Assembly (NCBI RefSeq): GCF_000230835.1
Contig: NZ_CM001240.1
Location: 1,496,501 to 1,560,500, forward strand
Source of the DNA: Clostridium sp. DL-VIII
Lineage (GTDB): Bacteria > Bacillota > Clostridia > Clostridiales > Clostridiaceae
Direction of reading: 5' to 3'
DNA: 64,000 nt
Under the pieces are notes generated by a model, which was not told the origin of the DNA, did not search any database, and worked only from the letters and a program-made list of their open reading frames with translations. Within the stretch, counting starts at the first letter, position 1, and each line of letters starts with the position of its first letter. Positions 32,386-46,211 of the stretch are shown piece after piece. Both the position numbers and the translations under genes were made by a program.

Positions 32386-33004
32386 CAATACATTATTAGG
32401 ATATCAGCCTGATTATTATAAAACATCTAAAGTTATGCAGCAAATTAATAATGCTAATGCTAACGAGTTGAACATATTAAACTCACGCATTGACCTTATA
32501 AAGCTGAACTATGACATAGATACAGCAGATGCAAATACTTTAACTAGATGGGAAAAAGAATTTAAAATAAAGAGTTTGCCTAATGATAGTTTAGATGCTA
32601 GAAGAGCACGAGTTAAGTCAAGGTTCTTGGGACAAGGTGATTTCTCTGAACAAATGATAAAGGATATTGCTAAAGCCTATATAAGTGAAGAGATAGATGT
32701 AATATTGGATTTACCTAATTTTGAATTTAAAATTGAGTTTATTTCTAATTCAGGAATATCAAAAAATATAGAAGACTTTTTTGAAGTTATAGAGGAAGTA
32801 AAAACCACATATTTAAGAGCAGATTACAAAATTACATCTAATACTAATAGTGTTTTATCTATAAAAGCATTTGGATTATATGGGGAAGAAATAAGAGTAC
32901 TTCCATATCAAATAACTAGTATAAGTACAAATGGGAATATAGATATCGGTTTAGCACAAACAAGCGGAGCTGAAACAATAACAGTACAGCCTAAGGAGGG
33001 ATAA
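32375..33004 (+). CDS. XkdU/YmfQ-like baseplate protein, DUF2313 (209 aa)
   Basis: The N-terminus (LDSNTLLGYQPDYYKTSKVM, then RWEKEFKIKSLPNDSLDARR) matches the YmfQ/XkdU family (P2 gpI-like tail tip wedge). ATG 32375 follows TTAGGAG at 7 nt. It overlaps the Baseplate J gene by 11 nt, so the two are coupled. Confidence 0.85.
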   Translation: MLDSNTLLGYQPDYYKTSKVMQQINNANANELNILNSRIDLIKLNYDIDTADANTLTRWEKEFKIKSLPNDSLDARRARVKSRFLGQGDFSEQMIKDIAKAYISEEIDVILDLPNFEFKIEFISNSGISKNIEDFFEVIEEVKTTYLRADYKITSNTNSVLSIKAFGLYGEEIRVLPYQITSISTNGNIDIGLAQTSGAETITVQPKEG

Positions 33005-33008
33005 TATA

Positions 33009-33659
33009 ATGGCAGAACAATTTTATACAATACCGACTGCTATAGGTAAGGCAAAGATAGCTAATAGCATAGCACTAGGGACTAAAATTAATCTAACGAC
33101 TATGAAAATTGGAGATAGTAATGGTAGTTACTATAATCCAAATGAAAGTCAAACTGACTTAGTACATTCGGTTTATTCTTGTAATATAAATTCGGTTGCG
33201 GTTGATGAGGATAATGCAAATTGGATCAATATAATATGTGCCCTTCCTTCAGATGTAGGAGATTTTTATATAAGAGAAGTAGGTGCATTTGATGATACTG
33301 GTGCTTTAATATCAATCGGTAAATATCCTGAGACATATAAACCAATTGCAACTAATGGCAGTACAAAAGAAATCTATATTAAAATGACATTAGAAGTAAC
33401 CAGCACTAGCAGTATTGAACTAAAAATAGATCCAACGGTGGTACTTGCAACAAAGAAAGATATAGATATTTTAACCAATTCTATTAATTCAATTACTACA
33501 CACTTGTCAGAAAAAATAGAATTGTACATTGGAGAGACATTACCAGCTATAGCTGACAGAAAGAAAAACACTTTATATTTTAAAGTAACAGATACAATAA
33601 GCACCGGTACTACAGAAAATATAAAAGTAAGTCCAACAATGGGTATAAAAGTAATTTAA
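33009..33659 (+). CDS. Tail fibre/collar protein N-terminal type (216 aa)
   Basis: FYTIPTAIGKAKIANSIALG and later DFYIREVGAFDDTGALISIG match the phage tail-collar/fibre N-terminal domain (DUF3751) that joins fibres to the baseplate. It is short: the distal parts are carried by the next proteins, so the fibre is split over several genes. Confidence 0.85.
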   Translation: MAEQFYTIPTAIGKAKIANSIALGTKINLTTMKIGDSNGSYYNPNESQTDLVHSVYSCNINSVAVDEDNANWINIICALPSDVGDFYIREVGAFDDTGALISIGKYPETYKPIATNGSTKEIYIKMTLEVTSTSSIELKIDPTVVLATKKDIDILTNSINSITTHLSEKIELYIGETLPAIADRKKNTLYFKVTDTISTGTTENIKVSPTMGIKVI

Positions 33660-33678
33660 AAGGAAGGGTGATTATATA

Positions 33679-34215
33679 ATGGCAAGTTTAAACAAAGTAA
33701 GGGTTCAATTGCTAAATGAAAGTACAGGAGAAGTTTTACAAGAAGTAGATGTAATGACAAGTGCAGATGCAGTCACATTCAGCGATGGAGAAACGTTTCA
33801 AGAGAAGTTAGATGCAGGAGAATTAAAAGGCAATAAGGGAGATACTGGTGCAACAGGGCCTCAAGGCGCAACAGGAGCTACTGGTTCTACAGGTGCAACT
33901 GGAACTAGAGGTTCACAATGGTTTACTGGAACAGCAATAACAGGAACTAGCACAACAGCAACTATATTTAGTGGTAGCGGAATAACATCTGCTTTAGTAG
34001 GAGACCAATATTTTAATACAAGTACTGGAAATGTATATAACTGTACCGTTGCCGGAAATGCAGCCACAGCAAAATGGGTATATACTACTTGTCTAAAAGG
34101 TGCTACTGGTGCTACAGGAGCACAAGGCCCAGCAGGTGCGGATGGTGCGAGTGCTAAAGTTGGTACAACATATGCAACAGGAACGGAAGTAAAATTATTT
34201 TTAAAGACTATGTAA
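33679..34215 (+). CDS. Collagen-like tail fibre protein (178 aa)
   Basis: Two blocks of G-X-Y triplets (GDTGATGPQGATGATGSTGA and GATGATGAQGPAGADGAS) flank a small beta domain (FTGTAITGTSTTATIFSGSG). The repeats predict a trimeric triple helix, giving a rod-like fibre segment. The short repeat DNA is prone to slippage and length change, which can alter host range. Confidence 0.85.
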   Translation: MASLNKVRVQLLNESTGEVLQEVDVMTSADAVTFSDGETFQEKLDAGELKGNKGDTGATGPQGATGATGSTGATGTRGSQWFTGTAITGTSTTATIFSGSGITSALVGDQYFNTSTGNVYNCTVAGNAATAKWVYTTCLKGATGATGAQGPAGADGASAKVGTTYATGTEVKLFLKTM

Positions 34216-34229
34216 AGGAGGCAGAATAA

Positions 34230-34757
34230 ATGTCAATAAAAGATGTAGAAATACAAGATGATCAAGGTAATATTTATTATCCTCATACGAATGCATCACT
34301 GGTAAAATATAATGAAAGTACAGTTGAAGAGGCACTGGATGCTCATGGTACGTCCTTGTCAGAAAAGGCGAATAACACAGATAATTCTAGAACAACGACA
34401 AATAAAACTGTAACAGGAGCTATAAATGAACTAAATAATAATAAAGCAAGTAATGTATATGAGGCTCCAACTGCTCCTACATTAATAAATGGATGGATAA
34501 ACTATAGTGGTTATGGATATCTGTATTACTGGAAAGATAGTCTTGGATATGTATGTATAAGAGGAGTTGTTTCGAGTGGAACTCCAGACACGCCTATTTT
34601 TACTCTTCCAGCAGGGTATAGACCAAATATTCCGCTAATTTTTGCAGCAGATGATAATTGTACACATAGCTATGTTTATATTGGAGTTAATGGTATGGTT
34701 GTGGGACACACAAATACTAGATTATCGGTTAACATAAAATTTAGGGAGAGTGTTTAG
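34230..34757 (+). CDS. Tail fibre tip protein (175 aa)
   Basis: The N-terminal trimerising coil (VKYNESTVEEALDAHGTSLS, KTVTGAINELNNNKASNVYE) is common in clostridial fibres. The C-terminal beta-rich domain (GYGYLYYWKDSLGYVCIRGV, FTLPAGYRPNIPLIFAADDN) is the likely receptor-binding head. Start follows AAGGAGGCAG. Confidence 0.8.
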   Translation: MSIKDVEIQDDQGNIYYPHTNASLVKYNESTVEEALDAHGTSLSEKANNTDNSRTTTNKTVTGAINELNNNKASNVYEAPTAPTLINGWINYSGYGYLYYWKDSLGYVCIRGVVSSGTPDTPIFTLPAGYRPNIPLIFAADDNCTHSYVYIGVNGMVVGHTNTRLSVNIKFRESV

Positions 34758-35087
34758 ATGAGAAAAGTATTAAAAATAGATGATAATGGATTTTTTATAG
34801 AAGATGTTTTACTAGAAAATAAAGAAATAACTCCAGATGATTGCATAGAAATTAATTGTCCTGTAGGTTTTTACAAACCTAAATGGGATGGTGATAAATG
34901 GGTTGAAGGATTAACGAAAGAAGAACTTAATGTAATTAAAAATAAAACTATACAACCAACACAAGAGGAAATTTTAAGGGCAAAACTAATAAAAGATAAT
35001 GCTAATATTCAATTACTATTAACACATCAACAACAAATTAATGCAAATTTATTAAGTCAAATAGCTAAATTAGGAGGTGCAAAATAA
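34758..35087 (+). CDS. Fibre-associated/assembly protein (109 aa)
   Basis: The N-terminus (KIDDNGFFIEDVLLENKEIT, then GFYKPKWDGDKWVEGLTKEE) resembles small phage proteins between fibres and XkdX with an F-Y-K-P-[KR]-[WF]-[DN] segment. The C-terminal helix may be a chaperone handle. Starts right after the fibre stop and overlaps the XkdX ATG by one base. Confidence 0.7.
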   Translation: MRKVLKIDDNGFFIEDVLLENKEITPDDCIEINCPVGFYKPKWDGDKWVEGLTKEELNVIKNKTIQPTQEEILRAKLIKDNANIQLLLTHQQQINANLLSQIAKLGGAK

Positions 35088-35242
35088 TGGACAATTTTTG
35101 GTATGGAATAATAAAGGAATACTATGGATTAGGGCTGTATGCAGTTAGTGACTTAGATACATTTGTACAGGCTAAGTGGATTACAGCGGATGAAAAAACA
35201 GAAATAATTGGAACTAATATAACTCAAGTTTCTGCATCATAG
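35087..35242 (+). CDS. XkdX family protein (51 aa)
   Basis: DNFWYGIIKEYYGLGLYAVS and KWITADEKTEI match XkdX, a short conserved phage protein downstream of fibre genes. ATG is joined to the preceding stop (TAATG). Function unknown. Confidence 0.85.
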   Translation: MDNFWYGIIKEYYGLGLYAVSDLDTFVQAKWITADEKTEIIGTNITQVSAS

Positions 35243-35273
35243 AAAGATAGGGCGCAGAAAAGAGGTGATTATT

Positions 35274-35435
35274 TTGCAAGAAAGGAATAAGACATATCCC
35301 TGCGATCCAACTAAAAATATGGAATGTAATAAGAACCATTGTTTCATTATTAATGGAGAATGTTCTGAAACTTTAAATAAAAAGTATAAAATCAGTGCTA
35401 TTAAAAAAATATTATTTAAAATATTGGGAATATAA
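35274..35435 (+). CDS. Small Cys-containing phage protein (53 aa)
   Basis: TTG 35274 follows AGAGGTGATT. KTYPCDPTKNMECNKNHCFI and NGECSETLNKKY form a four-Cys pattern common among clostridial phage short proteins near the lysis genes. It ends in a basic hydrophobic helix. Function unknown. A weak hairpin with a T run follows at about 35450-35480. Confidence 0.65.
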   Translation: MQERNKTYPCDPTKNMECNKNHCFIINGECSETLNKKYKISAIKKILFKILGI

Positions 35436-35522
35436 AGATAAGGAATTTAAGCGTAAATCGGGACTTTTAGGAGTCTTTTTTTATGCTTATTTTTATAAAA
35501 TTTGAATCAAGGAAGGTGAAAT

Positions 35523-35807
35523 ATGGATATAACAACAATTGGGATTATTTGCACGGTATCTGGAGCAATAATAGGATTCTTAGGCTATAAAAGAACAGCA
35601 ACAAAAGATATAAAAGAGGAAAGTAATACTCAGACAAAGCTTGAAATGCAACTTAATTATATTTCTAGAGGTGTTGATGATATTAAACTAGATATGAAAA
35701 TGCAAGATAATAAAATCAATGGAGTTATAGAGAGAGTTGCAAAAGTAGAAGAATCAGCAAAATCAGCCCATAAGAGGCTAGATGATATAGAAAAAGGAGA
35801 AATGTAA
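35523..35807 (+). CDS. XhlA/BhlA-type holin accessory protein (94 aa)
   Basis: One N-terminal membrane helix (IGIICTVSGAIIGFLGY) is followed by a basic stretch and a long coiled coil (LEMQLNYISRGVDDIKLDMK, RVAKVEESAKSAHKRLDDIE). The layout fits hemolysin XhlA-like or BhlA-like proteins that work with a holin. It lies 1 nt before the holin. Confidence 0.65.
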   Translation: MDITTIGIICTVSGAIIGFLGYKRTATKDIKEESNTQTKLEMQLNYISRGVDDIKLDMKMQDNKINGVIERVAKVEESAKSAHKRLDDIEKGEM

Positions 35808-35808
35808 A

Positions 35809-36420
35809 ATGAAAGAATTATTAATTAGTCAAATTGCCCCTATTGCTACTACTGCTATTACTGCAATTTTAGTAGTGATTATTAAAACAATTGGAAGTGC
35901 TGCAGTAGAAGTGCTATCTAAAAAGAAAGAACAAATTGATCAAGCTATTAAAGCTAGTGGACATGAACAGGATTTACAAACAGCCAAGGAAGTATGGAAT
36001 ATAGTTGAAGAGAAATTCAGGATCACTAAAAATGCATCGAAACTATTCAAATCAAAAGCAGATGAATTTAATAAACTGCTACTTCAAAGAATACCAGGAT
36101 TATCAGAACAGAATTTGTATGATTTAAGGCAAGCTATAGCTGGAGAAGTTAATGCTTATAAATCTACACTATTAACTGGAGAAGCTATTAACACAGGTAT
36201 TATTACAGTATCAGATAGAGAGAGCTTAGCTAAAGTTTCAGATGATAAATCTGTTGATGAAGCTACTCAAAATACTTTACAGGCTTCAACAGATATTCAA
36301 AATGATGTTGCTCAAGATTCTATAAGCTCAAATGGTGCAGATATTAAAAACGCAATAGTTATTAATTCTACAATTACACCAAAAGCAAATACAGCAGATG
36401 ATGCAACTACAAATGCATAG
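35809..36420 (+). CDS. LL-H-type holin (203 aa)
   Basis: An N-terminal TM segment (ISQIAPIATTAITAILVVII) and the following coiled helical region (FRITKNASKLFKSKADEFNK, LRQAIAGEVNAYKSTLLTGE) match Phage_holin_6/LL-H family proteins. It is longer than normal because of an Asn/Thr/Asp-rich C-terminus. It would permeabilise the membrane for the endolysin 12 nt downstream. Confidence 0.78.
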   Translation: MKELLISQIAPIATTAITAILVVIIKTIGSAAVEVLSKKKEQIDQAIKASGHEQDLQTAKEVWNIVEEKFRITKNASKLFKSKADEFNKLLLQRIPGLSEQNLYDLRQAIAGEVNAYKSTLLTGEAINTGIITVSDRESLAKVSDDKSVDEATQNTLQASTDIQNDVAQDSISSNGADIKNAIVINSTITPKANTADDATTNA

Positions 36421-36432
36421 GGAGATGATAGC

Positions 36433-37299
36433 GTGTTAGATATACAAGAACAAATTATTAGTTATAATAAAACTGCTAGAAGTACAGTTCCACAGTATAT
36501 AGTCATTCATGATACAGGAGATCCAGGAGCAATCGCACAAAATGAACATGATTATTTTGCTGGCGGAGATAGGCAAGCATCAGCAGATTTTTTTGTTGAT
36601 TCAGCAAACATAATTCAAATTATAAATACAGATGCATATTACTCTTGGCATTGTGGTGATGGTCATGGAGTATATGGAATAAGTAATAGTAATTCATTAG
36701 GTATTGAAATGTGCATTGAATCTGATGGTATTCCATCAGGTGCAACAATTCAAAATACCCTAGATTTAATTAAATATCTTATGAACAAATACAATATAGA
36801 TATAGACCATGTGGTAAGACATTATGATGCTAGTAGAAAGTGTTGCCCTAATTCATTTAGTTCTAATAATTGGCAAAGATGGACAGACATTAAGCAAAAA
36901 TTGCAAGAAGTCAATATTGTATTAGGATGGAATAAAAATAATACTGGCTGGTGGTATTGTACAGATACTGCTAATAAATACTATTATAAAGATTCTTGGC
37001 GATATATAGATGGAGAGTGGTATTCGTTTGATTCTGATGGATATGCAAGGCAATCAGTTTGGATTCAAGATGGAGGATATTACTATTATTTAAAAGATAA
37101 CTGTATGATGGCAAAAGCTGAATGGATTAAATATAATTCAGATTGGTATTACTTACAAGCAGATGGCAAAATGGCTACTGGTTGGGTTTTAGATAATGAT
37201 AAATATTATTTATTATATTCTAATGGCTCAATGGCTCATGATTGTAATTCATATGGTTACAGCTTTGATAGTAATGGTGTAGCTACTAAAATAAGTTAG
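36433..37299 (+). CDS. Endolysin: N-acetylmuramoyl-L-alanine amidase with cell-wall-binding repeats (288 aa)
   Basis: The Amidase_2 domain (residues 1-160) has the zinc His in YIVIHDTGDPG and the second site in DHVVRHYDASRKCCPNSF. The C-terminal 120 residues carry about five aromatic repeats of the choline-binding type (GWNKNNTGWWYCTDTANKYY, WYSFDSDGYARQSVWIQDGG), near-identical in pattern to those of the XkdP-like protein. GTG start follows GGGAGATGATAGC. There is no signal peptide, so export depends on the holin. Confidence 0.93.
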   Translation: MLDIQEQIISYNKTARSTVPQYIVIHDTGDPGAIAQNEHDYFAGGDRQASADFFVDSANIIQIINTDAYYSWHCGDGHGVYGISNSNSLGIEMCIESDGIPSGATIQNTLDLIKYLMNKYNIDIDHVVRHYDASRKCCPNSFSSNNWQRWTDIKQKLQEVNIVLGWNKNNTGWWYCTDTANKYYYKDSWRYIDGEWYSFDSDGYARQSVWIQDGGYYYYLKDNCMMAKAEWIKYNSDWYYLQADGKMATGWVLDNDKYYLLYSNGSMAHDCNSYGYSFDSNGVATKIS

Positions 37300-37303
37300 A
37301 TTT

Positions 37304-37338
37304 TTAGGGTATAGGAGTTAATCCTGTACCCTTTATTT
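37304..37338 (+). terminator. Terminator of the lysis operon
   Basis: AGGGTATAGGA and TCCTGTACCCT form the stem around GTTAA, followed by TTTATTTTTTTT. A degraded copy of this hairpin occurs at about 40488-40520. Confidence 0.85.
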
Positions 37339-37396
37339 TTTTTGAAAAATTGCGAATATAATAATACATTTATGAACTGATAAAAGGAGTAGCATA

Positions 37397-37756
37397 ATGA
37401 ATTTAACAGATATAAAAGTTTGACTTAATTATTTAGAGGCCATAAGGCAAGTATGTATTTTTATAATTATAATCATATCAATATCGAAAATTTTTAATTA
37501 TCCCCGAACCATTAATGAAAGTGGTTTTGGAATAAAGGAAATTCTTATTGATACTTTTAGAAGCGCGGGATATTTCTTTTTAGCATATATAATATATACA
37601 TATTATACTCTACGTGTAATTGATATAGATATTTTAACTTTTTTTACATATATGCTATCGTGTGTTGAAGGAACTGCTGCAGGTTGTAATATAGCTGAGT
37701 ATATTATAAAAATAATAAAAACATTTATTTTAACTTTTTTCTATAATGAGTATTAA
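37397..37756 (+). pseudogene. Membrane protein gene interrupted by one in-frame TGA (119 codons)
   Basis: ATG follows AAAGGAG and reads MNLTDIKV, then TGA at 37421-37423, then stays open for 110 codons to TAA at 37754. The remaining part has two or three hydrophobic helices (VCIFIIIIISISKIF, FFLAYIIYTYYTL). TGG at the ninth codon would restore the frame with Trp. This is most simply a recent nonsense mutation. I do not recognise the family. Confidence 0.7.
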
Positions 37757-37880
37757 CATAGGAATTTAATATATTTACTTTAAAATAAAAGAATGCTAAA
37801 ATATAATAAGAGAACAAATGTTCTGATAGATAAATTTTTTGGAATTATTGTGAAAAATGTAGAAATGTTTTACAATATAT

Positions 37881-37926
37881 AACAAGAAATCAAATTTACA
37901 CAATTAAAATTATTTCTTGTTATAAT
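37881..37926 (+). promoter_or_regulatory. Promoter with 10-bp inverted repeat upstream of the two-gene cassette
   Basis: AACAAGAAAT (37881-37890) and ATTTCTTGTT (37912-37921) are perfect complements. They bracket TTTACA (37895-37900) and touch TATAAT (37921-37926). The -35/-10 spacing is 20 nt, which suggests a weak or factor-dependent promoter. The repeat may be an operator or a structured RNA start. Confidence 0.55.
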
Positions 37927-37998
37927 AGAGCATATTCTATTACCTCTGTTATAGCATAAATTTAAAATGATATGAACATTATAATGGAGGGGATAAAA

Positions 37999-38931
37999 AT
38001 GCAAAGAACAACAACTATTGCTAATTTCAACTGTACTTTTGGAAAGAATAATGATCCTATGTTAACGTATTTTTCAGAAATAATTTATCCAGCTTTTACA
38101 TCAGAAGATATAAGAAGAGTAGGAGATGATGAATATTTTTTTGAAGATGTAAAGTTAGAAAATCTTCAAAGTGGAAGAATAGTGTTAAAAGGTATGCTTG
38201 TTAAGAAGACAAAGCTAGAAGTAAGAACTGAATATGATGTTGAAAAAGGTAAAATTAATTTTACAAATAAGTTATATGATACTGCGCCAATTTCTATATT
38301 TACACTATTTTTGGATAATCATAGAATGCTATATACTCCAAATCAAAAAGGTAGTCCTAATATACGTAGCTTTGCTGCAACTATAAAATATATGACAAGT
38401 ATTATTATAAAAAAATTCAATGAAGATTTACCTAAAGACGAAAAAATACCTTATCCAACAATAGATGTAGTAGATATACCATCTCAAAAAGAAATTATAG
38501 AAAAATTAAAAAATGTTAGAACTATAAGCAAGCTAAGATTTAGATTTTTTCATAAAAATGGTGATATAAACACAGAAGATGCATTTGAATGGATGGAAGA
38601 TGATTTGAAAGAACTAGGAGCTAAAAATAGTGAAATAGTTATTACTTCACCAACTAAATTTAATAAAGTTGCTGAAAGAATAAATCAAAGTAAAGGTTTG
38701 GCAAAAGTTGATTTAAAAGTTATATATGAAAATGGAGCAAGAGGTAAACTTGATAATGAATCGATGAGTGAACGATTTCCGATAGAATATCCAGAAGGTT
38801 CATCTGTTGAGACTGTGTCAACTGTCTCCATGAATACACTTAAAGATAATGAGTTGATGAATGAAGTAGGGAAAGAGAATGCTAAAATATTTGATTTAAA
38901 TAAGATAAAGTTAACAAGGTTTCTGAAATAA
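37999..38931 (+). CDS. Soluble protein of unknown function, first gene of an accessory pair (310 aa)
   Basis: ATG follows GGAGGGGATAAAA. It begins QRTTTIANFNCTFGKNNDPM and appears soluble, with alternating strands and charged helices (EYFFEDVKLENLQSGRIVLK, KLRFRFFHKNGDINTEDAFE). It has no recognised motif and no Walker box or nuclease signature. It lies 21 nt before a four-helix membrane protein with no terminator between. Soluble sensor plus membrane partner recalls RexAB and Kiwa phage-defence pairs in layout only; no homology is claimed. Its place beside attR marks it as a lysogenic cargo gene. Confidence 0.7.
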   Translation: MQRTTTIANFNCTFGKNNDPMLTYFSEIIYPAFTSEDIRRVGDDEYFFEDVKLENLQSGRIVLKGMLVKKTKLEVRTEYDVEKGKINFTNKLYDTAPISIFTLFLDNHRMLYTPNQKGSPNIRSFAATIKYMTSIIIKKFNEDLPKDEKIPYPTIDVVDIPSQKEIIEKLKNVRTISKLRFRFFHKNGDINTEDAFEWMEDDLKELGAKNSEIVITSPTKFNKVAERINQSKGLAKVDLKVIYENGARGKLDNESMSERFPIEYPEGSSVETVSTVSMNTLKDNELMNEVGKENAKIFDLNKIKLTRFLK

Positions 38932-38952
38932 ATAGTAAAATGGAGGTGCAAA

Positions 38953-39600
38953 ATGACTAAAAAACAAATTCTGATAGATAACCTATCTGATATAAAAAAA
39001 TATAAAAGTAAAAAGTTTAGTGAAGTAATAAAAGAAGCTTTTTGCACCATAATACCATCAAAAAGACGATTAGTGGTGATTTTAATAGTATTAGTAATAC
39101 TAGCATATCCAATAGAAATAAGTGTTAAATCTAATAATACACTAAGTAACCTAAAAGATTTATTAGGATTATCAAATGGAGTAATAATGGCTATGTTTGC
39201 AATATTGTTTACTGGCTATGCATTATTTCAGGCATTGATTAATAGAAACACATTAAAGATACTTTTCTTAAGCAAAAGTAAGCATGGAAAGTCACTATTC
39301 TCTGAATATAATCTATATTTTTTCGCCATGTGTATATTATATGTTTTATTAATAATAATTAATTATATAGGAACATTTATAATAATATATATAGGAACAA
39401 ATAATATCGTAAATATTAATGAAGAAGCAAAGAACATAATTTTGAGAATATGCATATATTTATACTTATTTATAAACATTTTCGCGATTATAGAAATTAA
39501 GAGTTTTATATATAATTTATTTCAATGCTTTAATATAAGTGCGATGTCGACAATGATAGAGTCATTATCCAAATATGATGATAATCTACATGAAAAGTAG
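38953..39600 (+). CDS. Four-helix membrane protein, second gene of the accessory pair (215 aa)
   Basis: ATG follows TGGAGGTGC. A basic cytoplasmic N-terminus of about 30 residues is followed by four TM segments: LVVILIVLVILAYPIEISV, VIMAMFAILFTGYALFQAL, YFFAMCILYVLLIIINYIG and ILRICIYLYLFINIFAIIEI. The C-terminus is short and polar. No transporter motif is seen. It is coupled with the preceding soluble protein, and the two probably act together, with this one as membrane effector or anchor. Confidence 0.7.
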   Translation: MTKKQILIDNLSDIKKYKSKKFSEVIKEAFCTIIPSKRRLVVILIVLVILAYPIEISVKSNNTLSNLKDLLGLSNGVIMAMFAILFTGYALFQALINRNTLKILFLSKSKHGKSLFSEYNLYFFAMCILYVLLIIINYIGTFIIIYIGTNNIVNINEEAKNIILRICIYLYLFINIFAIIEIKSFIYNLFQCFNISAMSTMIESLSKYDDNLHEK

Positions 39601-39640
39601 TAGCTAGGAGCAATCCAACTACTGCTTTATTTTTTATGCA
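39595..39640 (+). terminator. Terminator repeat, copy 1
   Basis: AGTAGTAGCTAGGAG ... CAACTACTGCTTTATTTTTT forms a hairpin with T run. Close copies stand at 41546-41590 and 41731-41766, so this terminator type has been spread within the accessory arm. Confidence 0.75.
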
Positions 39641-39702
39641 ATATTATTACATTTTACATATTATATGGTATAATTGTGTAAAACTATAGGAAGGGTGAGA
39701 GT

Positions 39703-39873
39703 ATGGGGATAACAAGAGGTTTGATTAAACCACTATCTGGATTTTTTATATTAGCTATGTGCATAGCGTATAACCAACAGATTGGATTAGTAGTTGCAAA
39801 AGCTGTATTTAAATTTGGAGAAATATTTAGCAGTGTAATTAGTCCTATTTTTTTAAGAATACTTGGAATTTAA
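39703..39873 (+). CDS. Small hydrophobic protein (56 aa)
   Basis: ATG 39703 follows AGGAAGGGTGAG. The product (ITRGLIKPLSGFFILAMCIA and so on) has one strong membrane segment and an amphipathic second half. A TATAAT lies at about 39669-39674. It is unrecognised. The small size and hydrophobicity would fit a phage-resistance or toxin peptide, but no evidence decides. Confidence 0.5.
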   Translation: MGITRGLIKPLSGFFILAMCIAYNQQIGLVVAKAVFKFGEIFSSVISPIFLRILGI

Positions 39874-39923
39874 ATGCTTGAAATTAAATACTTATGTAAA
39901 AATAATGATCAGAGGTGAATCGC

Positions 39924-40145
39924 ATGGAAATAAAGTTAGATGAAATAGAAGTATTGACAATATTACAGGCTATAGAAGCATTATATGACGATTCAAAAGA
40001 ACTTAAGAATATAATATATGAGGATGAGAAAGAATATTTTATGGATACCAATGAAATTAAAATGTTATATAATAAATTATTAATTCGGGCACAAAATGAA
40101 GGGATGATTGATGATAGATTAAATTTTACAATGAATATAGAATGA
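39924..40145 (+). CDS. Hypothetical helical protein (73 aa)
   Basis: ATG 39924 follows AGAGGTG. It is acidic and helical (EIKLDEIEVLTILQAIEALY, EYFMDTNEIKMLYNKLLIRA). No family is recognised. It is the last intact gene before the endolysin vestige. Confidence 0.58.
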   Translation: MEIKLDEIEVLTILQAIEALYDDSKELKNIIYEDEKEYFMDTNEIKMLYNKLLIRAQNEGMIDDRLNFTMNIE

Positions 40146-40402
40146 TTAGTTAAGATATGGTAAAATTAAATAAATATAAGTATAAACCCGTTTTACCCAT
40201 TAAGCTTAACAATTTAGAATAAGGGTAGTAGATAATAGAAATATTGCTGACTACTCTTATTTGGTTTATAATTATCATTTACTTGATTTCAATATAATGG
40301 TAATACATAAATGAAAGCATTACTTTATTTTATAATAATAGCAGCAGACAAGGATATCTTTGTTTGTTGCTATTGTTTTAGTGTAGAGCTATTTAAAATT
40401 AT
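40146..40402. other. Non-coding stretch with two hairpins
   Basis: AATAAGGGTAGTAG pairs imperfectly with CTACTCTTATT (about 40217-40262). AGCAGCAGACAA pairs with TTTGTTTGTTGCT (about 40348-40375) and is followed by T residues. No gene was found. Confidence 0.6.
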
Positions 40403-40520
40403 AGTGATGGGAAAATGATTCATGATTGTGGATTATATGGATATTCTTTTGATAGTAACGGTGTAGTTAGTAAAATTAAGTTAGATTTTTTAGGGGATGG
40501 GAGTTAATCCTATGCCATTT
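40403..40520 (+). pseudogene. Vestigial second copy of the endolysin 3' end and its terminator
   Basis: In frame it reads SDGKMIHDCGLYGYSFDSNG and then VVSKIKLD. This matches the end of the endolysin at 37222-37299 (SNGSMAHDCNSYGYSFDSNG, then VATKIS). The homology continues into the terminator (TTAGATTTTTTAGGGG, GGAGTTAATCCTATGCC). Only about 35 codons remain, without start. It shows that the DNA between the two copies (about 37300-40400) was inserted by recombination or that a second lysin was lost. Confidence 0.8.
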
Positions 40521-40696
40521 ATTTCTTGTAGAAAATTTGTAAATTATAGAAATATTAACACTTTAAATTCTTACATTATAATTTTTATATGGTATAATAT
40601 GTTTAAATCAACATAGTTGATTTAAGCTTAAAAAGATATAAGAATTAGTGTTAAATGTTATTTATCTGAAAGTTATTGAAAGGGGACTAATGAATT

Positions 40697-41539
40697 ATGT
40701 TGGAAAATATTACAGAATTTTTACTGAATGATGGACTTAAAGTACCTAGCATAGGTTTTGGAACATATGGCCTAAATGGTATAGAAGGAGCTAATAACAT
40801 TAAACAGGCAATTGATTTAGGATATAGATTAATTGACACAGCTTTTAATTATGAAAATGAAGGTGCAGTTGGAGAGGCAGTGAGAAAAAGCTCTGTTTCA
40901 AGAGAAAAACTTATAATAACTTCTAAATTACCTGGACGTCATCACTCATATAAAGAGGCTATTACTACAATTCAAGAATCACTATTTAGAGGTGGAGTAG
41001 AGTATTACGATTTATATCTTATTCATTGGCCTAATCCAAAAATTAATTTATATGTTGAAGCTTGGCAGGCAATGATTGAATTAAAAAAACAAGGCTTAAT
41101 TAGATCAATAGGCGTTTGCAATTTCATGCCAGAACATTTAGAGACTCTAATAAAAGAAACTGGAGTGACTCCTAGTATTAATCAAATCGAGCTTCATCCT
41201 TATTTCAATCAAGAAGAACAACGTGATTTTGATAAAGAACATGGTATAGTTACAGAGTCTTGGAGCCCTCTTGGAAGAGGTAATAGCATGTTAAGTAATG
41301 AGAAACTTGCTAAAATAGCTGAAACATATGGAAAATCTATTTCACAAATAATTTTACGTTGGCATATGCAACTTGGAGTTATTCCAATTCCAAAAGCATC
41401 ATCAAAAGAACATCAATTAGATAATTTAAACATTTTTGATTTTAAATTATCAGAAAAAGAAATGAAAATAATTTCTGGACTTTCTCGTAAGAATGGACGT
41501 ACAAATAATCAAGATCCTAGAATTTATGAAGAATTTTAA
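40697..41539 (+). CDS. Aldo/keto reductase carried by the prophage (280 aa)
   Basis: It is a NADPH-dependent carbonyl reductase of the AKR5-like group. The catalytic tetrad is visible: Asp in IDTAFNYENE, Tyr in the same segment, Lys in IITSKLPG and His in LIHWPNP. The cofactor pocket motif IPIPKASSKEHQLDNLNIF is near the end. Length is standard. The protein has no phage function; it is metabolic cargo in the accessory arm. ATG follows AAAGGGGAC with a plausible promoter (TATAAT at about 40594). Confidence 0.9.
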   Translation: MLENITEFLLNDGLKVPSIGFGTYGLNGIEGANNIKQAIDLGYRLIDTAFNYENEGAVGEAVRKSSVSREKLIITSKLPGRHHSYKEAITTIQESLFRGGVEYYDLYLIHWPNPKINLYVEAWQAMIELKKQGLIRSIGVCNFMPEHLETLIKETGVTPSINQIELHPYFNQEEQRDFDKEHGIVTESWSPLGRGNSMLSNEKLAKIAETYGKSISQIILRWHMQLGVIPIPKASSKEHQLDNLNIFDFKLSEKEMKIISGLSRKNGRTNNQDPRIYEEF

Positions 41540-41545
41540 TGTATA

Positions 41546-41590
41546 AGCAGTAACTAAGAGAAATCCAGCTACTGCTTTATTTTTTGATAT
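41546..41590 (+). terminator. Terminator repeat, copy 2 (after the reductase)
   Basis: AGCAGTAACTAAGAG ... CAGCTACTGCTTTATTTTTT ends the reductase transcript and matches copy 1 at 39595. Confidence 0.8.
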
Positions 41591-41676
41591 TTGTGTGATA
41601 CAATCTAAAATAAATTGAATTATAAATAAAAATATGTTAAATTAGAAAAAAAGCTTGGTCCATAATAGCTTTAATA

Positions 41677-41721
41677 AAGGTAGATTTAATTGGTGTATAT
41701 TATCTACCTTTATTTTTTTAT
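41677..41721 (+). terminator. Orphan terminator hairpin
   Basis: AAAGGTAGAT (41677-41686) and ATCTACCTTT (41702-41711) with T run. No gene precedes it within about 130 nt, so the gene it served has probably been lost. Confidence 0.7.
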
Positions 41722-41730
41722 ACTAAAATA

Positions 41731-41766
41731 AGCAGTAGCTAAGAGTAATTTAATTACCGCTTATTA
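41731..41766 (+). repeat. Terminator repeat, copy 3 (degraded)
   Basis: AGCAGTAGCTAAGAGTAA ... TTACCGCTTATTAG keeps the pattern of copies 1 and 2 but lacks the T run. It again has no gene before it. Confidence 0.65.
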
Positions 41767-41976
41767 GGCAAAAAGAGAAAATAATCATAATTTTGTTGAG
41801 ATATGGGCACAAATAATTTTTATTTTATTTATATTGTAGTATATTAAAATGAGATAAGAAATGTTCCTTGTTAAAATCTTGATTTAGTAGACGTATTATG
41901 TTAAGGTAAATATATTACCTATATCTTTGTACCTTTTATTTTAGGCGGCACACAATAGAAATGTTGTTTGCTGCCA

Positions 41977-42090
41977 TTATTTTTTAATTTTATATAGAAA
42001 TGCTAAAAATAAGACCCAATTAATACTAACAGACGTTAGAAAAAATATGGAGTAAATAACTGTCTTGCTTGAACCACCATCAGAACTCAT
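41977..42090 (-). CDS. Leftward small membrane peptide (37 aa)
   Basis: ATG at 42090 (minus strand) follows ATGGAGGTAATTATT, a strong ribosome site. The peptide has a polar start (MSSDGGSSKT), one TM helix (VIYSIFFLTSVSINWVLFLA) and a basic end (YKIKK). A stable hairpin (41944-41976, GGCGGCACACAA with TTGTTTGCTGCC) lies directly past its stop. Another (GTAGTTAGGA/TCCTAACTAC, 42135-42162) lies in its 5' region. The layout resembles type I toxins but is not diagnostic. Confidence 0.5.
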   Translation of the reverse strand: MSSDGGSSKTVIYSIFFLTSVSINWVLFLAFLYKIKK

Positions 42091-42745
42091 AATAATTACC
42101 TCCATAATTTTCTGTTAAATTAATTTATAAAATAGTAGTTAGGACCATATTAAGAATCCTAACTACTGAAGATGATACTAGCTCTTTTATGATAAAATGG
42201 TTGCTAATAATATATATTATATTAAAACACAAGAAAAATGTTACTAAAACAAAGGGACTATATAAAAATATAATCCATTTGAATTTATTGTATTAATACT
42301 AGATAAGAGGAAACTCAAGTGATCCTACTATATATTATATTAAAGGACTTCCTAATAAATAACAAAAGGCAGTAAATTTTTTTGATGCTAACTAAATTTA
42401 CTGCTTATAAAAAAATTATAATAAGGAGGGAACTTTAATGAATTACTTGTATAAAACAATATTGAAATATTAATATATATCATATTCTATTATATTAAAT
42501 AAATATAATAATGTTACTTATTCAGAATAAAAAAGAAGGAATCACATTTTAATGATTCCTCAAGATAATAAAAATTAATATTTTAATCAGGCAAGAAAAT
42601 ATGAGACTTAGTATAATATATTAAATGTATTCTTAATAAGTGATTATAAATTATAGAATTGGCAAATTTGCAAAAAATACGTTATAGATGATTTAACAGT
42701 ATAATAATATAATATTGTATGATACTAAATTAGGGGGGATGGCAT
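42091..42745. other. Gene-poor stretch with several hairpins
   Basis: It holds hairpins at 42135-42162, at about 42368-42405 (GCAGTAAATTT with AAATTTACTGC) and at 42537-42560 (AGGAATCA/TGATTCCT). One strong ribosome site (AAGGAGGGAAC, 42423) leads to only 11 codons (42439-42474), which looks like a remnant. No other gene was found. Confidence 0.6.
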
Positions 42746-42895
42746 ATGGGAAAAGTAACTATAGATACAATATTGGAAACAATAAAAGGGCTACCAGAGG
42801 AGCAACAGGAGATTATATTATATTTAACAGATATATTCCAAGGGGAAGAAGAGACTATTAATGAGTATGTAAAAAATGAATTACTTAAGAAATAG
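42746..42895 (+). CDS. Small acidic protein (49 aa)
   Basis: ATG 42746 follows TAGGGGGGATGGC. The product (KVTIDTILETIKGLPEEQQE, LYLTDIFQGEEETINEYVKN) is helical and resembles short phage or chromosomal antitoxin-like peptides in clostridia. No partner toxin is adjacent. Function unknown. Confidence 0.58.
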   Translation: MGKVTIDTILETIKGLPEEQQEIILYLTDIFQGEEETINEYVKNELLKK

Positions 42896-43313
42896 ATCTA
42901 TAATAGTTATGGATTAAAGGGGTAAGATATGATATTGTAAATGAGAAATATTATTAATGAGAGGTTTCGATATAAATAATATAGCTAGTATGTAAGTTCT
43001 GGGATTACATACTAGCTATATTTGTTTAGGGGATAAAAAGCTTAACATCTTAATTATTGACACTAATATTAAACATTATACAAATAAAAAAGAGGCAGTA
43101 ACCGAAGTTGCCACCAGTCCATTTTGCAAATCTATTATATCTTAGTTTAGTAATTAAAATCAAGAGGTAAAATATAGAGATAGCTAAAAATTAGCAGAAA
43201 GAAGAGCTATCTCTATTGATAAATTATTACCCTTTACGATTAGGAATATTGACATATTAATGAAATATTATACAATTATATTATATAACTTGTAAAAAGA
43301 AGGGAAGATATTA
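42896..43313. other. Non-coding stretch with strong hairpins
   Basis: A perfect 16-bp hairpin, TATAGCTAGTATGTAA (42980-42995) with its complement at 43005-43020, is followed by TTTGTTT and ends the preceding transcript. A 12-bp hairpin, ATAGAGATAGCT (43174-43185) with AGCTATCTCTAT (43205-43216), precedes the Ltp-like gene. No gene was found. Confidence 0.7.
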
Positions 43314-44051
43314 ATGCCTAAAATGATTCAATGCAAAACGTGTGGGAAAGAAATAGTTAAAAATGCCAAAACATGTCCAAGCTGTGGGGCAAAAAATAAA
43401 AAGCCTATTTATAAAAGATGGTGGTTTATAGTTACTGTCTTAATAGTAATAATAGGAGCTGCATCTTCTGGTGGAAATAAAAACAAACAAGATGTAGCAA
43501 CAAGTGATACAACTAATTCAAGCATAAGTAATACTAAAGATACATCTGAAACGCATAACAACCAAGATGCTACAAATGATACAAAAGATAATGCACCTAA
43601 GGAATATCAATCAGCATTAAAAAAAGCAGATAGTTACGCCAACATAATGAATTTATCTAAAAAAGGCTTATATCAGCAATTAACATCAGATGCTGGGGAA
43701 AAATTTACTGAAGAAGCTGCACAATATGCTGTAGATAACGTAAAAGCAGATTGGAAAAACAATGCATTAAAAAAAGCAGATAGTTACGCCAACACAATGA
43801 ATTTATCTAAAAAAGGCTTATATCAGCAATTAACATCAGACGCTGGAGAAAAATTTACTGAAGAAGAAGCACAATACGCCATAGATAACGTAAAAGCAGA
43901 TTGGAAAAAGAATGCATTAGCAAAAGCCAAAACATATCAAAATGAAATGAATATGTCTAAGAGTGCTGTACATGATCAATTAGTGTCAGATGCAGGAGAG
44001 AAATTTACTGAAGAAGAAGCACAATATGCTATAAATAATTTAGAAAATTAA
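43314..44051 (+). CDS. Zinc-ribbon/TM protein with three Ltp repeats, likely superinfection exclusion (245 aa)
   Basis: Residues 1-30 form a zinc ribbon (CKTCGKEIVKNAKTCPSCG). WWFIVTVLIVIIGAA is one TM helix, then a Ser/Asn/Thr linker. From about residue 100 come three 50-residue Ltp repeats (ALKKADSYANIMNLSKKGLY, QQLTSDAGEKFTEEAAQYAV). The family is named after Ltp of phage TP-J34, whose repeats block DNA injection of other phages. Here the lipobox is replaced by a ribbon-TM anchor. Repeats 1 and 2 are nearly identical DNA (period 150 nt: 43614, 43764, 43914). Likely expressed in the lysogen. Confidence 0.85.
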   Translation: MPKMIQCKTCGKEIVKNAKTCPSCGAKNKKPIYKRWWFIVTVLIVIIGAASSGGNKNKQDVATSDTTNSSISNTKDTSETHNNQDATNDTKDNAPKEYQSALKKADSYANIMNLSKKGLYQQLTSDAGEKFTEEAAQYAVDNVKADWKNNALKKADSYANTMNLSKKGLYQQLTSDAGEKFTEEEAQYAIDNVKADWKKNALAKAKTYQNEMNMSKSAVHDQLVSDAGEKFTEEEAQYAINNLEN

Positions 44052-44186
44052 AAATAACAAAGTAAAAAACATACTATAACCGTACTTAAATTTATTTAAA
44101 ACATAAAAATATAGATTTAAGATTGAAGTACCTTTAAATTAATATATTAAATAAAATATAATATATTAAGGAAGAAATAAAATAAG

Positions 44187-44229
44187 AGCAAGAATTAATT
44201 GATGATATTTTTTCTTGCTTTTATATTTT
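44187..44229 (+). terminator. Terminator-like hairpin after the Ltp gene
   Basis: AGCAAGAA (44187-44194) and TTCTTGCT (44212-44219) with a T-rich tail. Confidence 0.65.
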
Positions 44230-44281
44230 TAAGAGAGAATTAGATATAATACAAAAAATTAATAGAACTATAGAAATCACT

Positions 44282-44312
44282 AGGCCATGACTATTATTGT
44301 CATGGCCTTTAT
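44282..44312 (+). terminator. Last phage terminator before mtaB
   Basis: AGGCCATGAC (44282-44291) and GTCATGGCCT (44299-44308) form a perfect 10-bp stem with T residues. It insulates the rebuilt mtaB from phage transcription. Between here and 44380 only a weak promoter is seen (TTGTCT 44324, 17 nt, TAAACT 44347). Confidence 0.85.
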
Positions 44313-44397
44313 TACAAATTTCCTTGTCTTTCAAAAGAAAATATATTAAACTCTATCAATAGACATGAGGATTGAAGTTTGGAGGAAAGCTATTGCT

Positions 44398-45777
44398 ATG
44401 GAAAAAAATAAAATAAAAATAGTTGATGTTAATCGTTATAAAATAAGGAACAATAGAGAAAATAATAATAAAAAAATCGTAGCCTTTTTTACTTTAGGAT
44501 GCAGAGTAAACCATTATGAAACAGAGGCTATGGCAGAAAAATTTATAAGAGAAGGTTATGAAATCACCCAATTTGAGAATTTTGCGGATGTTTATGTAAT
44601 AAATACATGTTCAGTGACTAATATGAGCGATAAAAAATCCAGACAGATAATAAGTAGGGCGAGAAGAAGAAATAAAGAAGCTATAATTGCTGCAGTTGGT
44701 TGCTATTCTCAAGTAGCACCAGATGAGGTTTCTAAAATAGAGGGCGTAGATGTTGTACTTGGAACTAGAAACAAGGGAGATATTGTTTATTACGTAAACA
44801 AGGCTAAAGATGAGCATAAGCCTCAATTAATGGTTGGAGAAGTTCTTAAAAATAAGCAATTTGAGGAATTAAATATAGAAGAGTATCAAGATAAAACCAG
44901 AGCTTTCTTAAAGATACAGGATGGATGTAATAGATTCTGTGCATATTGCTTAATACCATATACAAGAGGAACAACCTGTTCAAAAGATCCTGATAAAGTG
45001 CTAACGGAAATAAAGAAGTTAAATGAACATGGATTTAAGGAAATAATATTATCTGGAATTCATACTGCGTCTTATGGTGTTGATTTAGATGGAAATGTAA
45101 GCTTGATAACTTTATTGGAAGAAATTGAAAAATTGGATGGTATAGAAAGAGTGAGAATAGGCTCAATTGAACCTAGTTTCTTTACTGATGAAGTCATAGA
45201 GAAAATAAAGAACATGAAAAAATTATGTCCGCAATTTCATTTATCTCTTCAAAGTGGATGTGATGCTACTTTAAAGAGGATGAATAGAAGATATACGGCT
45301 AAAGAGTATGAGGATGCAGTGAATAGAATTAGAGAAAATTTGAAAGATGCATCAATAACAACTGATGTAATCGTAGGATTTCCAGGTGAAACTGACGAAG
45401 AATTTAATGAAACCTATGAATACTTAAAACGAATAAAATTAACTAAAACGCATATATTTAAATTTAGTCCGAGAAAAGGAACTAAGGCAGCAGACATGTC
45501 AAACCAGGTTGATGGAAATGTTAAGGAACAGAGAAGCAAAGCTCTAATTGAGCTTAACGAAAAAAATGAAGGCGATTTTAGTAAATCCTTAGTTGGAAGA
45601 GAGCTTGATGTCTTAATTGAACAAGAAGTTTCAAATAAGCCTGGGGTATTTGAGGGATATACAAGAAACTATGTCAAAGTTGAGATTTTTATTGGAAATG
45701 AAAACATGATAGGTAAATTGGTTCCTTGCAAAATAGTAGAAGCATGTGGAAATTATGTGGTTGGAAAAAAAATATAA
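44398..45777 (+). CDS. mtaB: MtaB, tRNA t6A37 methylthiotransferase, rebuilt with a phage-encoded N-terminus (459 aa)
   Basis: MtaB adds a methylthio group to t6A37 of tRNA by radical-SAM chemistry. UPF0004 cluster Cys are in TLGCRVN, INTCSVTN and AVGCYSQ. The radical-SAM motif is CNRFCAYC (GCNRFCAYCLIPYTRG). A C-terminal TRAM domain follows. ATG 44398 follows GGAGGA at 44381 (11 nt); an upstream ATG 44365 has no site. Residues 1 to about 34 (MEKNKIKIVDVNRYKIRNNR and on to KKIVAFFTLG) are phage DNA up to the junction at 44500. They replace the host N-terminus left at 94-220. Confidence 0.92.
   Translation: MEKNKIKIVDVNRYKIRNNRENNNKKIVAFFTLGCRVNHYETEAMAEKFIREGYEITQFENFADVYVINTCSVTNMSDKKSRQIISRARRRNKEAIIAAVGCYSQVAPDEVSKIEGVDVVLGTRNKGDIVYYVNKAKDEHKPQLMVGEVLKNKQFEELNIEEYQDKTRAFLKIQDGCNRFCAYCLIPYTRGTTCSKDPDKVLTEIKKLNEHGFKEIILSGIHTASYGVDLDGNVSLITLLEEIEKLDGIERVRIGSIEPSFFTDEVIEKIKNMKKLCPQFHLSLQSGCDATLKRMNRRYTAKEYEDAVNRIRENLKDASITTDVIVGFPGETDEEFNETYEYLKRIKLTKTHIFKFSPRKGTKAADMSNQVDGNVKEQRSKALIELNEKNEGDFSKSLVGRELDVLIEQEVSNKPGVFEGYTRNYVKVEIFIGNENMIGKLVPCKIVEACGNYVVGKKI
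44491..44505. other. attR (right prophage junction in mtaB)
   Basis: actttaggatgcaga pairs with actctaggctgtcgg at 211-225 (see attL). The shared TG is at 44500-44501. Left of the exchange the phage DNA codes VAFFTLG, almost the same as the host VAFATLG, so the attP half-site is itself a functional coding end. Confidence 0.75.
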
Positions 45778-45866: not shown

Positions 45867-46211
45867 ATGGAAGATTGTATATTTTGCAAAATTGCGATGG
45901 GAGAAATTCCAAGTAAAAAGTTATATGAAGATGATAAGGTATATGCTTTTTACGATATAAATCCAGAAGCTCCTGTTCATTTTTTAGTGATACCTAAAGA
46001 ACACATTGAAAGTGTAAATGCTTTGAATGATAATAATATTAATATTGTTTCACACATATTTAATGTTATTAACAAGTTAGTTGTGGAACTTAATATATCA
46101 GATACAGGGTATAGGATTGTCAATAATTGCGGTGAAGATGGAGGTCAGACAGTGAAACATATTCATTTTCATGTACTTGGAGGGAGAAGCTTGAAGTGGC
46201 CTCCAGGCTAA
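45867..46211 (+). CDS. hinT: HIT family protein HinT (114 aa)
   Basis: It hydrolyses nucleoside phosphoramidates. CIFCKIAMGEIPSKKLYEDD and the histidine triad HIHFHVLGG are present; N-terminal Cys pair is typical for this branch. ATG follows GGGAGGTGAAACC. The gene follows mtaB in many clostridia. Confidence 0.93.
   Translation: MEDCIFCKIAMGEIPSKKLYEDDKVYAFYDINPEAPVHFLVIPKEHIESVNALNDNNINIVSHIFNVINKLVVELNISDTGYRIVNNCGEDGGQTVKHIHFHVLGGRSLKWPPG

What the first reader, a model, noticed from the sequence alone, without database searches (positions are those of the whole stretch)
44398..44505. The prophage carries its own replacement 5' end for the host gene it interrupts (mtaB)
Insertion splits mtaB after codon 43 (94-220). 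At the other junction phage DNA provides GGAGGA, an ATG and 34 codons ending KKIVAFFTLG, fused in frame to CRVNHYETEAM. The host original read GKRLVAFATLG. So attP contains a coding mimic of its target, and lysogens keep an intact MtaB with a different leader and different 5' control. Restoring a 3' end is common for phages in tRNA genes or icd; restoring a 5' end with ribosome site is much rarer.
Basis: partly seen in the sequence, partly recalled or inferred. Interest (0 to 1): 0.85.

Follow-up and report, generated by a model that had tools for sequence, protein, structure and literature searches.

The report
Prophage carries replacement gene start
A bacterial virus that inserts itself into the start of a tRNA-modification gene carries its own substitute start for that gene, so the host appears to keep a complete gene while the virus is in place, and the same arrangement recurs with related viral integrases in other Firmicutes.

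Summary
Confirmed, and wider than reported. A 44.3-kb prophage with a large serine integrase (317-2233, minus) splits mtaB at the TG of the codon for the conserved first Cys (220-221, 44500-44501). The host piece left of it (94-219) is the native mtaB start, displaced behind rsmE. At the right end phage DNA supplies a Shine-Dalgarno sequence, an ATG (44398) and 34 in-frame codons ahead of the host's remaining codons. This is the only full mtaB found in the genome.

Three lines show that the new start is phage DNA. (1) Inspected relatives without the prophage resemble the left-hand version. (2) A related species is a fossil: decayed native start, integrase-gene remnant, and mtaB on a phage-type start. 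(3) A viral contig has such a leader between endolysin and integrase, the uninserted (attP) order.

Related integrases do the same in miaB, the paralogue, at the equivalent Cys codon. 21 of 23 replacement starts examined are in frame. By position, attP's left arm is both integrase half-site and coding sequence.

Activity of the hybrid MtaB and its promoter are inferred. The principle is known (SXT in prfC, islands in dusA), so this is a new variant of a known kind.

The parts
94..221 (+). Displaced native 5' end of host mtaB (42 codons plus TG of the Cys codon), downstream of the rsmE 3' end; frame runs on to a stop at 235-237
   Evidence: 31 of 43 residues identical to the closest empty-site relative L018, against 13 of 43 to the right-hand leader
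220..221 (.). attL crossover dinucleotide TG (B arm to the left, P' arm to the right)
   Evidence: dyad centre in 20 att sites
222..251 (.). attP right arm (P')
   Evidence: Dyad with the left arm (AAAGTAAA against TTTACTTT)
317..2233 (-). Large serine recombinase (integrase), 638 aa
   Evidence: Pfam Resolvase 1.3e-35, Recombinase 3e-27, Zn_ribbon_recom 5.1e-7
222..44501 (.). Prophage, about 44.3 kb: terminase, portal, major head protein, tail sheath, tape measure, amidase endolysin, superinfection-exclusion lipoprotein
   Evidence: PHROGs matches of 8 of 10 proteins scanned; Pfam
44282..44308 (.). Inverted repeat (10 pairs, 6 G-C), terminator-like; scored on the minus strand only
44324..44352 (+). 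Weak candidate promoter TTGTCT-17-TAAACT, found by eye; it overlaps a block AAAATATATTAAACTnTATCAA shared with fossil G021
   Evidence: Sequence; shared block 21 of 22; not listed by the consensus scan
44381..44385 (+). Shine-Dalgarno GGAGG of the replacement leader
44398..44499 (+). Phage-supplied replacement 5' coding sequence of mtaB, 34 codons (MEKNKIKIVDVNRYKIRNNRENNNKKIVAFFTLG); its last 25-30 bases are, by position, also the left arm (P) of attP
44500..44501 (.). attR crossover dinucleotide TG of the Cys codon TGC
44398..45777 (+). Hybrid mtaB (459 aa), phage leader plus host body; the only full mtaB found in the genome
   Evidence: NCBIfam TIGR01579 MtaB above cut-off; Pfam UPF0004, Radical_SAM, TRAM; one full copy
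45867..46211 (+). HIT-family protein downstream of mtaB, host side; ribosomal protein S21 follows at 46356
   Evidence: Pfam

Best explanation
A temperate phage with a large serine integrase recombines its attP with an attB inside mtaB, exchanging strands at the TG of the codon for the first conserved Cys of the methylthiotransferase domain. attP evolved so that its left half-site and the bases before it (about 100 in all) form a ribosome site, a start codon and an N-terminal coding segment for MtaB, in frame with TG. Integration therefore swaps the gene's first 42 codons for 34 phage codons and moves the old start, with rsmE, to the far side of the prophage. The lysogen keeps an uninterrupted mtaB frame that should give a working enzyme (tRNA ms2t6A37 synthesis); excision should return the native start. 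Shown by sequence: the split, the swap, frame and ribosome site, phage ownership of the leader, recurrence in relatives, dyad of attP at TG. Inferred: transcription from a phage-borne promoter, activity of the hybrid enzyme, excision, and selection for keeping the target gene alive as the reason.
For: Junctions and frame. Native relatives match the left fragment, and 28 of 30 inspected loci read rsmE-mtaB without interruption. Fossil G021: decayed native start broken at the same point, integrase-tail remnant (31 of 37 identical; 0 of 2000 shuffles as good), then mtaB with a phage-type leader (17 of 35 identical to the window's leader, alignment score 93; 16 natives score 51-72). Viral contig L158 has endolysin, leader MNNDNEKVDISLSSEEFKKKHGRPKTISFFTLGC and integrase in attP order. 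The same swap in miaB in 8 Clostridiaceae genomes, gene and integrase 35-45 kb apart on one contig in the same relative orientation in 6 of them. 21 of 23 leaders examined are in frame with start and ribosome site. attP dyad centred on TG: 10.05 of 18 complementary positions on average in 20 sites, 3.75-6.45 at 18 other centres, shuffled arms never above 6.4 in 2000.
Against: No RNA, protein or tRNA data. The window's promoter candidate is weak. In two MAGs (G210, G211) the replacement leader is one base out of frame with mtaB, so the mimic is not always intact. One miaB element (G151) shows no attP dyad (2 of 18). Pairing left arms with right arms of other elements still gives 8.48 of 18, so most of the dyad is a family-wide motif rather than element-specific. 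For CD160 the displaced and replacing leaders are nearly the same DNA, which leaves its direction open.
Confidence: 0.9

Rival explanations
1. The leader is present but mute: mtaB is in effect inactivated by the prophage and the open frame is a leftover of attB-attP similarity needed by the integrase.
For: Two MAGs have the leader one base out of frame; the window's promoter is weak.
Against: Integrase recognition explains about 25-30 bases (the half-site), not 100 bases with start codon and GGAGG; 21 of 23 leaders are in frame with start and ribosome site, and the 8 Clostridiaceae miaB leaders also carry TGnTATAAT; in the fossil G021 the native start has decayed while the frame behind the phage-type start stayed open and still scores as MtaB.
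Confidence: 0.08
2. The right-hand version is the native mtaB of this lineage and the left fragment is a foreign or duplicated piece brought by the phage.
For: Both versions are homologous.
Against: The left fragment sits directly behind rsmE, as in 28 of 30 inspected genus loci, and is closest to empty-site relatives (31 of 43 to L018); among the loci read, the right-hand type was seen only in the window, the fossil and phage contexts.
Confidence: 0.01
3. Beyond sparing the gene, lysogeny puts mtaB (and perhaps HIT and rpsU behind it) under phage-borne signals, so the prophage tunes tRNA modification.
For: Insertion separates mtaB from the rsmE side; IMEVchUSA3 lowers dusA expression by supplying its own signals (PMC8409611).
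Against: No evidence here for regulation by phage state; weak promoter candidate only.
Confidence: 0.2

Closest known systems
Integrative elements in the 5' end of dusA (Farrugia et al. 2015, PMC4482086; IMEVchUSA3, PMC8409611)
   Same: Prophages or islands insert in the 5' end of a tRNA-modification gene and supply new N-terminal codons and a promoter; for IMEVchUSA3 expression was shown with lacZ fusions (its section 13 read; section 18 of the other paper read; otherwise passages).
   Different: Different integrase superfamily (that the dusA and SXT integrases are tyrosine recombinases is recalled, not from a call); Proteobacteria; dusA/dusB. Here large serine integrases, Firmicutes, methylthiotransferase genes mtaB and miaB, exchange at a 2-base core.
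SXT/R391 ICEs in prfC (Hochhut and Waldor 1999, not seen; as described in a passage of PMC8409611)
   Different: ICE, gene prfC; different integrase superfamily (recalled).
Large serine integrases (phiC31, Bxb1, LI integrase; PMC3783163 and PMC10083194, passages seen)
   Same: Enzyme type; attP half-site of about 25 bp (LI integrase); directional integration.
   Different: In the passages seen there is no attP that restores the 5' end of its target; the survey PMC10083194 speaks of target genes as disrupted.
3'-end restoring phages (tRNA genes, icd; recalled)
   Same: attP carries a functional copy of the interrupted gene end.
   Different: There the 3' end is restored; here start codon, ribosome site and N-terminus are.

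Membership tests
Large serine recombinase prophage | Resolvase catalytic domain, Recombinase domain and zinc ribbon | tested here: met
Large serine recombinase prophage | attP as imperfect inverted repeat around a central dinucleotide shared by attL and attR | tested here: met
   TG; 10 of 18 complementary positions for the window, 20-site mean 10.05
Large serine recombinase prophage | Active excision with a directionality factor | not testable with these tools
   No induction data
5'-end-replacing integrative elements (SXT/prfC, dusA type) | Insertion near the 5' end of a protein gene with in-frame replacement codons from the element | tested here: met
5'-end-replacing integrative elements (SXT/prfC, dusA type) | Element supplies a promoter | tested here: inconclusive
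   TGnTATAAT in the 8 Clostridiaceae miaB elements; only a weak candidate in the window
5'-end-replacing integrative elements (SXT/prfC, dusA type) | Integrase of the same superfamily as theirs (tyrosine, recalled) | tested here: not met
   The integrase next to attL is a serine recombinase. A tyrosine-type integrase gene does lie mid-prophage at 14250-15266, far from either att site
MtaB-type methylthiotransferase (hybrid protein) | NCBIfam MtaB model above cut-off; conserved first Cys | tested here: met
   TIGR01579 470 bits, cut-off 357; Cys invariant in the 17 aligned sequences, the window's included
MtaB-type methylthiotransferase (hybrid protein) | ms2t6A synthesis | not testable with these tools
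   No biochemical data

The most novel reading that the evidence does not exclude
A clade of large serine integrases in Firmicutes phages has specialised on tRNA-modification genes (miaB, mtaB, and queA at its 3' end) and evolved attP half-sites that are simultaneously protein-coding exons, so that lysogeny is gene-preserving. In some hosts the phage-borne start has outlived the phage and become the host's only start for mtaB, and lysogeny places methylthiolation of tRNA under phage-borne expression signals.
Probability: 0.4. Interest if true: 0.75.

Novelty: new variant of a known kind. Interest (0 to 1): 0.62.

Why it matters
A survey of large serine integrases speaks of target genes as disrupted (PMC10083194, passages). 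Here a group of them spares the target by carrying a substitute start, in hosts from Clostridiaceae, Peptostreptococcaceae, Eubacteriaceae and others. It shows a DNA half-site under two constraints at once, recombinase recognition and protein coding, and a host gene that has adopted a phage start (G021). It also warns annotators: the full-length mtaB or miaB beside such a prophage is a hybrid, and the displaced fragment is the original. Because lysogeny changes the 5' region of a tRNA-modifying enzyme's gene, a simple question becomes testable: does a prophage alter decoding in its host?

Tried and rejected
Whether the right-hand version could be native: rejected with relatives. A second full mtaB elsewhere: none found in the own genome. 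Phage collection (INPHARED) by DNA with the attR region: no match; by integrase protein only under 60% identity, best Faecalibacterium phage Brigit at 46%, whose record begins and ends at genes so that its att site could not be read. The closest viral relative L040 (88% integrase) is cut at the integrase on one side and at a gene end on the other, so its attP is not visible. mtaB in viral contigs: no match. First genome-contig scan with the single integrase: none; with an alignment 73 loci. Crossover at GG instead of TG considered; the dyad centre favours TG. My motif search for target genes missed L084, L085 and L088 (stop or frame shift at the junction), which I assigned by eye. Acetobacterium paludosum was left out of the dyad count because the script picked a wrong attL; G021, G210 and G211 were not in it either. 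L085 is an aberrant long branch in the tree, probably because its integrase is read across a frame break. For C. difficile CD160 the displaced and the replacing leader are the same in protein and 98.4% identical over 251 bases, so its contig L093 may be attP or attL; it counts among the 23 leaders and the 20 dyads but says little about direction. For the genomes reached through named loci I did not check contig identity between integrase and MTTase gene; that their starts are replaced rests on the broken start beside the integrase and, for 7 of 9 loci scanned for it, a phage-family match just upstream of the MTTase gene (8 of 10 proteins; some matches weak; none for L241 and L249). G043 has a broken miaB start but no miaB was recovered. 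G159 has no broken start beside its partial integrase. PADLOC on 7 prophage proteins: nothing.

Prior description: searches for prophage + serine recombinase + miaB (2 papers, 2 listed), C. difficile + prophage + miaB + integrase + attB (14 listed), large serine recombinase + attachment site + tRNA modification + prophage (15 of 50 listed), mtaB + prophage + methylthiotransferase (12 of 82 listed) and serine integrase + queA + phage (none) showed no paper that, from title and abstract start, describes serine-integrase phages replacing the 5' end of methylthiotransferase genes. The library is open-access only, and most hits were seen as listings.

Full report
WHAT IS THERE. The window starts in the 3' end of rsmE (family named from its homologue in G021, TIGR00046 199 bits, cut-off 41), followed by the start of mtaB at 94 (MEENQMKKIKISNGKTVLKKMTYKELIKSSSGKRLVAFATLGC), which breaks off via RKVN into a stop. 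A large serine recombinase gene (317-2233, minus; Resolvase, Recombinase and zinc-ribbon domains) and about 44 kb of phage genes follow: terminase, portal, major head protein, tail sheath, tape measure, amidase endolysin and a superinfection-exclusion lipoprotein. At the far end phage DNA has GGAGG (44381-44385), ATG (44398) and 34 codons ending KKIVAFFTLG, continuing in frame into CRVNHYETEAM... to 45777. The hybrid scores as MtaB (TIGR01579, 470 bits, cut-off 357). The genome has one full mtaB; its next two matches are 34% and 33% identical and score as MiaB and RimO.

NATIVE STATE. mtaB was found in 66 of 68 genomes of the genus; 30 of these 66 loci were laid out and read by eye. In 28 of 30 mtaB follows rsmE directly with a native leader; the exceptions are the window's genome and G021. 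The left fragment is closest to such natives (31 of 43 residues to L018), while left and right versions share 13 of 43. The right leader's ribosome site and spacer (GGAGGAAAGCTATTGCTATGG) resemble native ones (for example L010, GGAGGAAAGCTATTGTAATGG), so the phage's copy probably derives from a clostridial mtaB start (inference).

FOSSIL. In G021 rsmE is followed by a decayed native mtaB start with a stop, broken at the same point. Then comes a stretch matching the 3' end of the window's integrase gene (31 of 37 identical, score 44; best of 2000 shuffles 34; best of 570 other places in the fetched 64 kb, one strand, 31), then about 8 kb with AraC-type, adenylyltransferase-like, DUF2334 and reverse-transcriptase genes, then mtaB with leader MDKNKIIIMKFNKHKYKVMNKNTNKSTVSFYTLGC. 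This leader scores 93 against the window's phage leader (17 of 35 identical); the 16 natives compared score 51-72. A block AAAATATATTAAACTnTATCAA ahead of both leaders is shared (21 of 22; 1 of 2000 shuffles reached the score). No integrase of this kind was found in G021 at E <= 1e-60, and one mtaB. I read it as an old insertion whose phage was lost and whose phage-borne start became the host's (inference).

UNINSERTED FORM. Viral contig L158 (integrase 65% identical) has an amidase-LysM endolysin, then the ATG-led leader MNNDNEKVDISLSSEEFKKKHGRPKTISFFTLGC, then TG, the P' arm and the integrase 3' end. Phage lysis gene on one side and integrase on the other is the attP order (a tandem array would look the same). 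L086 shows a leader beside an integrase for another clade, with a one-base frame difference.

GENERALITY. In the genome's family 10 of 206 genomes hold an integrase at E <= 1e-100. Of the nine besides the window's, eight abut a broken MTTase start, here of miaB (ETWGC| and similar); G159 does not. G023, with a partial integrase found in the genus search, also does. miaB with a replaced start was seen in G023, G025, G092, G099, G144, G151, G154 and G169; six of these eight have integrase and miaB on one contig, 35-45 kb apart, in the window's relative orientation; in G025 and G151 they are on different contigs, and in G043 no miaB was recovered. An alignment-based scan of named genomes gave 73 loci: 17 by motif and 3 by eye next to a MTTase start, 27 at the 3' end of queA by motif (3 of 3 tested are Queuosine_synth), 26 unassigned, 4 of them with under 80 bases of flank. 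Hosts with MTTase insertions include Clostridium, Clostridioides difficile CD160, Peptostreptococcus, Alkaliphilus, Halonatronum, Acetobacterium, Niameybacter and Oceanobacillus. Just upstream of the re-started genes 8 of 10 proteins scanned match phage families, among them a holin (CD160) and an endolysin (Peptostreptococcus); some matches are weak. In a tree of 38 integrases the mtaB-targeting ones other than the aberrant L085 form one supported set with L040 (97/89), queA-targeting ones another (100/100), and miaB-targeting ones the rest.

LEADERS. 21 of 21 leaders put through the script have a start codon and a Shine-Dalgarno sequence in frame with the Cys codon (15 miaB, 6 mtaB including window and fossil). 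Two further mtaB loci printed there, G210 and G211, are one base out of frame (MENKENKKKKSVALFTL... in one, a close variant in the other), so 21 of 23. The 8 Clostridiaceae miaB leaders have TGnTATAAT. For the window the script found nothing good; TTGTCT-17-TAAACT at 44324-44352 is my candidate by eye, which the consensus scan did not list. Displaced and replacing leaders share 3-8 of the last 8 residues before Cys and 32-100% overall (19 pairs, the 100% being CD160).

ATT SITE. attP was written from attR-left and attL-right for 19 insertions and read directly in L158. Complementarity of 18 positions on either side of TG averages 10.05; at 18 other centres 3.75-6.45; with shuffled right arms never above 6.4 in 2000. 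Re-pairing arms between elements gives 8.48 on average and reached the observed value in 1 of 2000, so the dyad is mainly a family motif. G151 is an outlier with 2 of 18. The arm length agrees with the 25-bp half-site of the LI integrase (PMC3783163, passages). So eight to ten codons before Cys serve as half-site and coding sequence together (inference from position).

HOW IT WORKS. Integration at TG puts phage leader codons before the host's CRVN... codons and pushes the native start away. Frame is kept because TG is at the same codon position in attP and attB. The replaced part is a variable extension plus the short stretch before Cys; many distant relatives have no extension at all (M-KVAFATLGC), which makes a working hybrid plausible. 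The match to solved MiaB structures starts at residue 20 of the 458 after Met. Insertion cuts mtaB off from the rsmE side, so a phage-borne promoter or read-through is needed; a 10-bp inverted repeat (44282-44308) lies in between. Behind mtaB come a HIT gene and rpsU. Not shown: expression, activity, tRNA modification, excision.

PRECEDENT. Farrugia et al. (PMC4482086, section 18 read): most dusA islands and prophages replace the 5' end with their own sequence, with putative promoters. PMC8409611 (section 13 read, passages otherwise; [quoted passage not shown] The principle is known; serine integrases, methylthiotransferase targets, the dual-use half-site and the fossil are what is new in the material I saw. 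My searches are listed under Tried and rejected.

Noticed in passing
window 14250-15266: A second, tyrosine-type integrase gene (PF00589 8.1e-36; phrog_1 2e-48) lies inside the prophage, just ahead of the terminase region and apart from the serine integrase at attL.
   Followed up: partly
window 43314-44051: The last long phage ORF before the leader encodes a lipoprotein with three Ltp repeats, matching superinfection-exclusion families (phrog_4980, 7.9e-91).
   Followed up: no
window 40697-41539: Aldo/keto reductase gene (PF00248, 5.7e-53) inside the prophage, possibly cargo.
   Followed up: no
window 2272-2694: HicB-like antitoxin domain protein next to the integrase; no partner looked for.
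   Followed up: no
27 of the loci L101-L155: Relatives of this integrase, many in gut Firmicutes, sit at the 3' end of queA (...YRFFSFGDAMFI), another tRNA-modification gene, where the phage would restore a 3' end instead.
   Followed up: partly
L237, L238, L086, L088: In one mtaB clade the phage leader is one base out of frame with mtaB, and the attL of L088 shows the same extra base as the phage arm; conversion between att sites or an unusual exchange point is possible. Unexplained.
   Followed up: partly
L089 and L242 (G212 C4): If both lie on the same contig, integrase and re-started mtaB are only about 2.6 kb apart: a very small or nearly deleted element.
   Followed up: no
L085 and L240 (Oceanobacillus jeddahense): If both lie on the same contig, integrase and re-started mtaB are about 136 kb apart, which suggests a very large element; the integrase match spans more DNA than its length, as if interrupted.
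   Followed up: no
L045 3444-5292: The closest viral relative (record of L040) has at its right end a gene with an ATP-binding motif (FtsK/TraG-like by eye) and one resembling replication-relaxation proteins (recalled).
   Followed up: no
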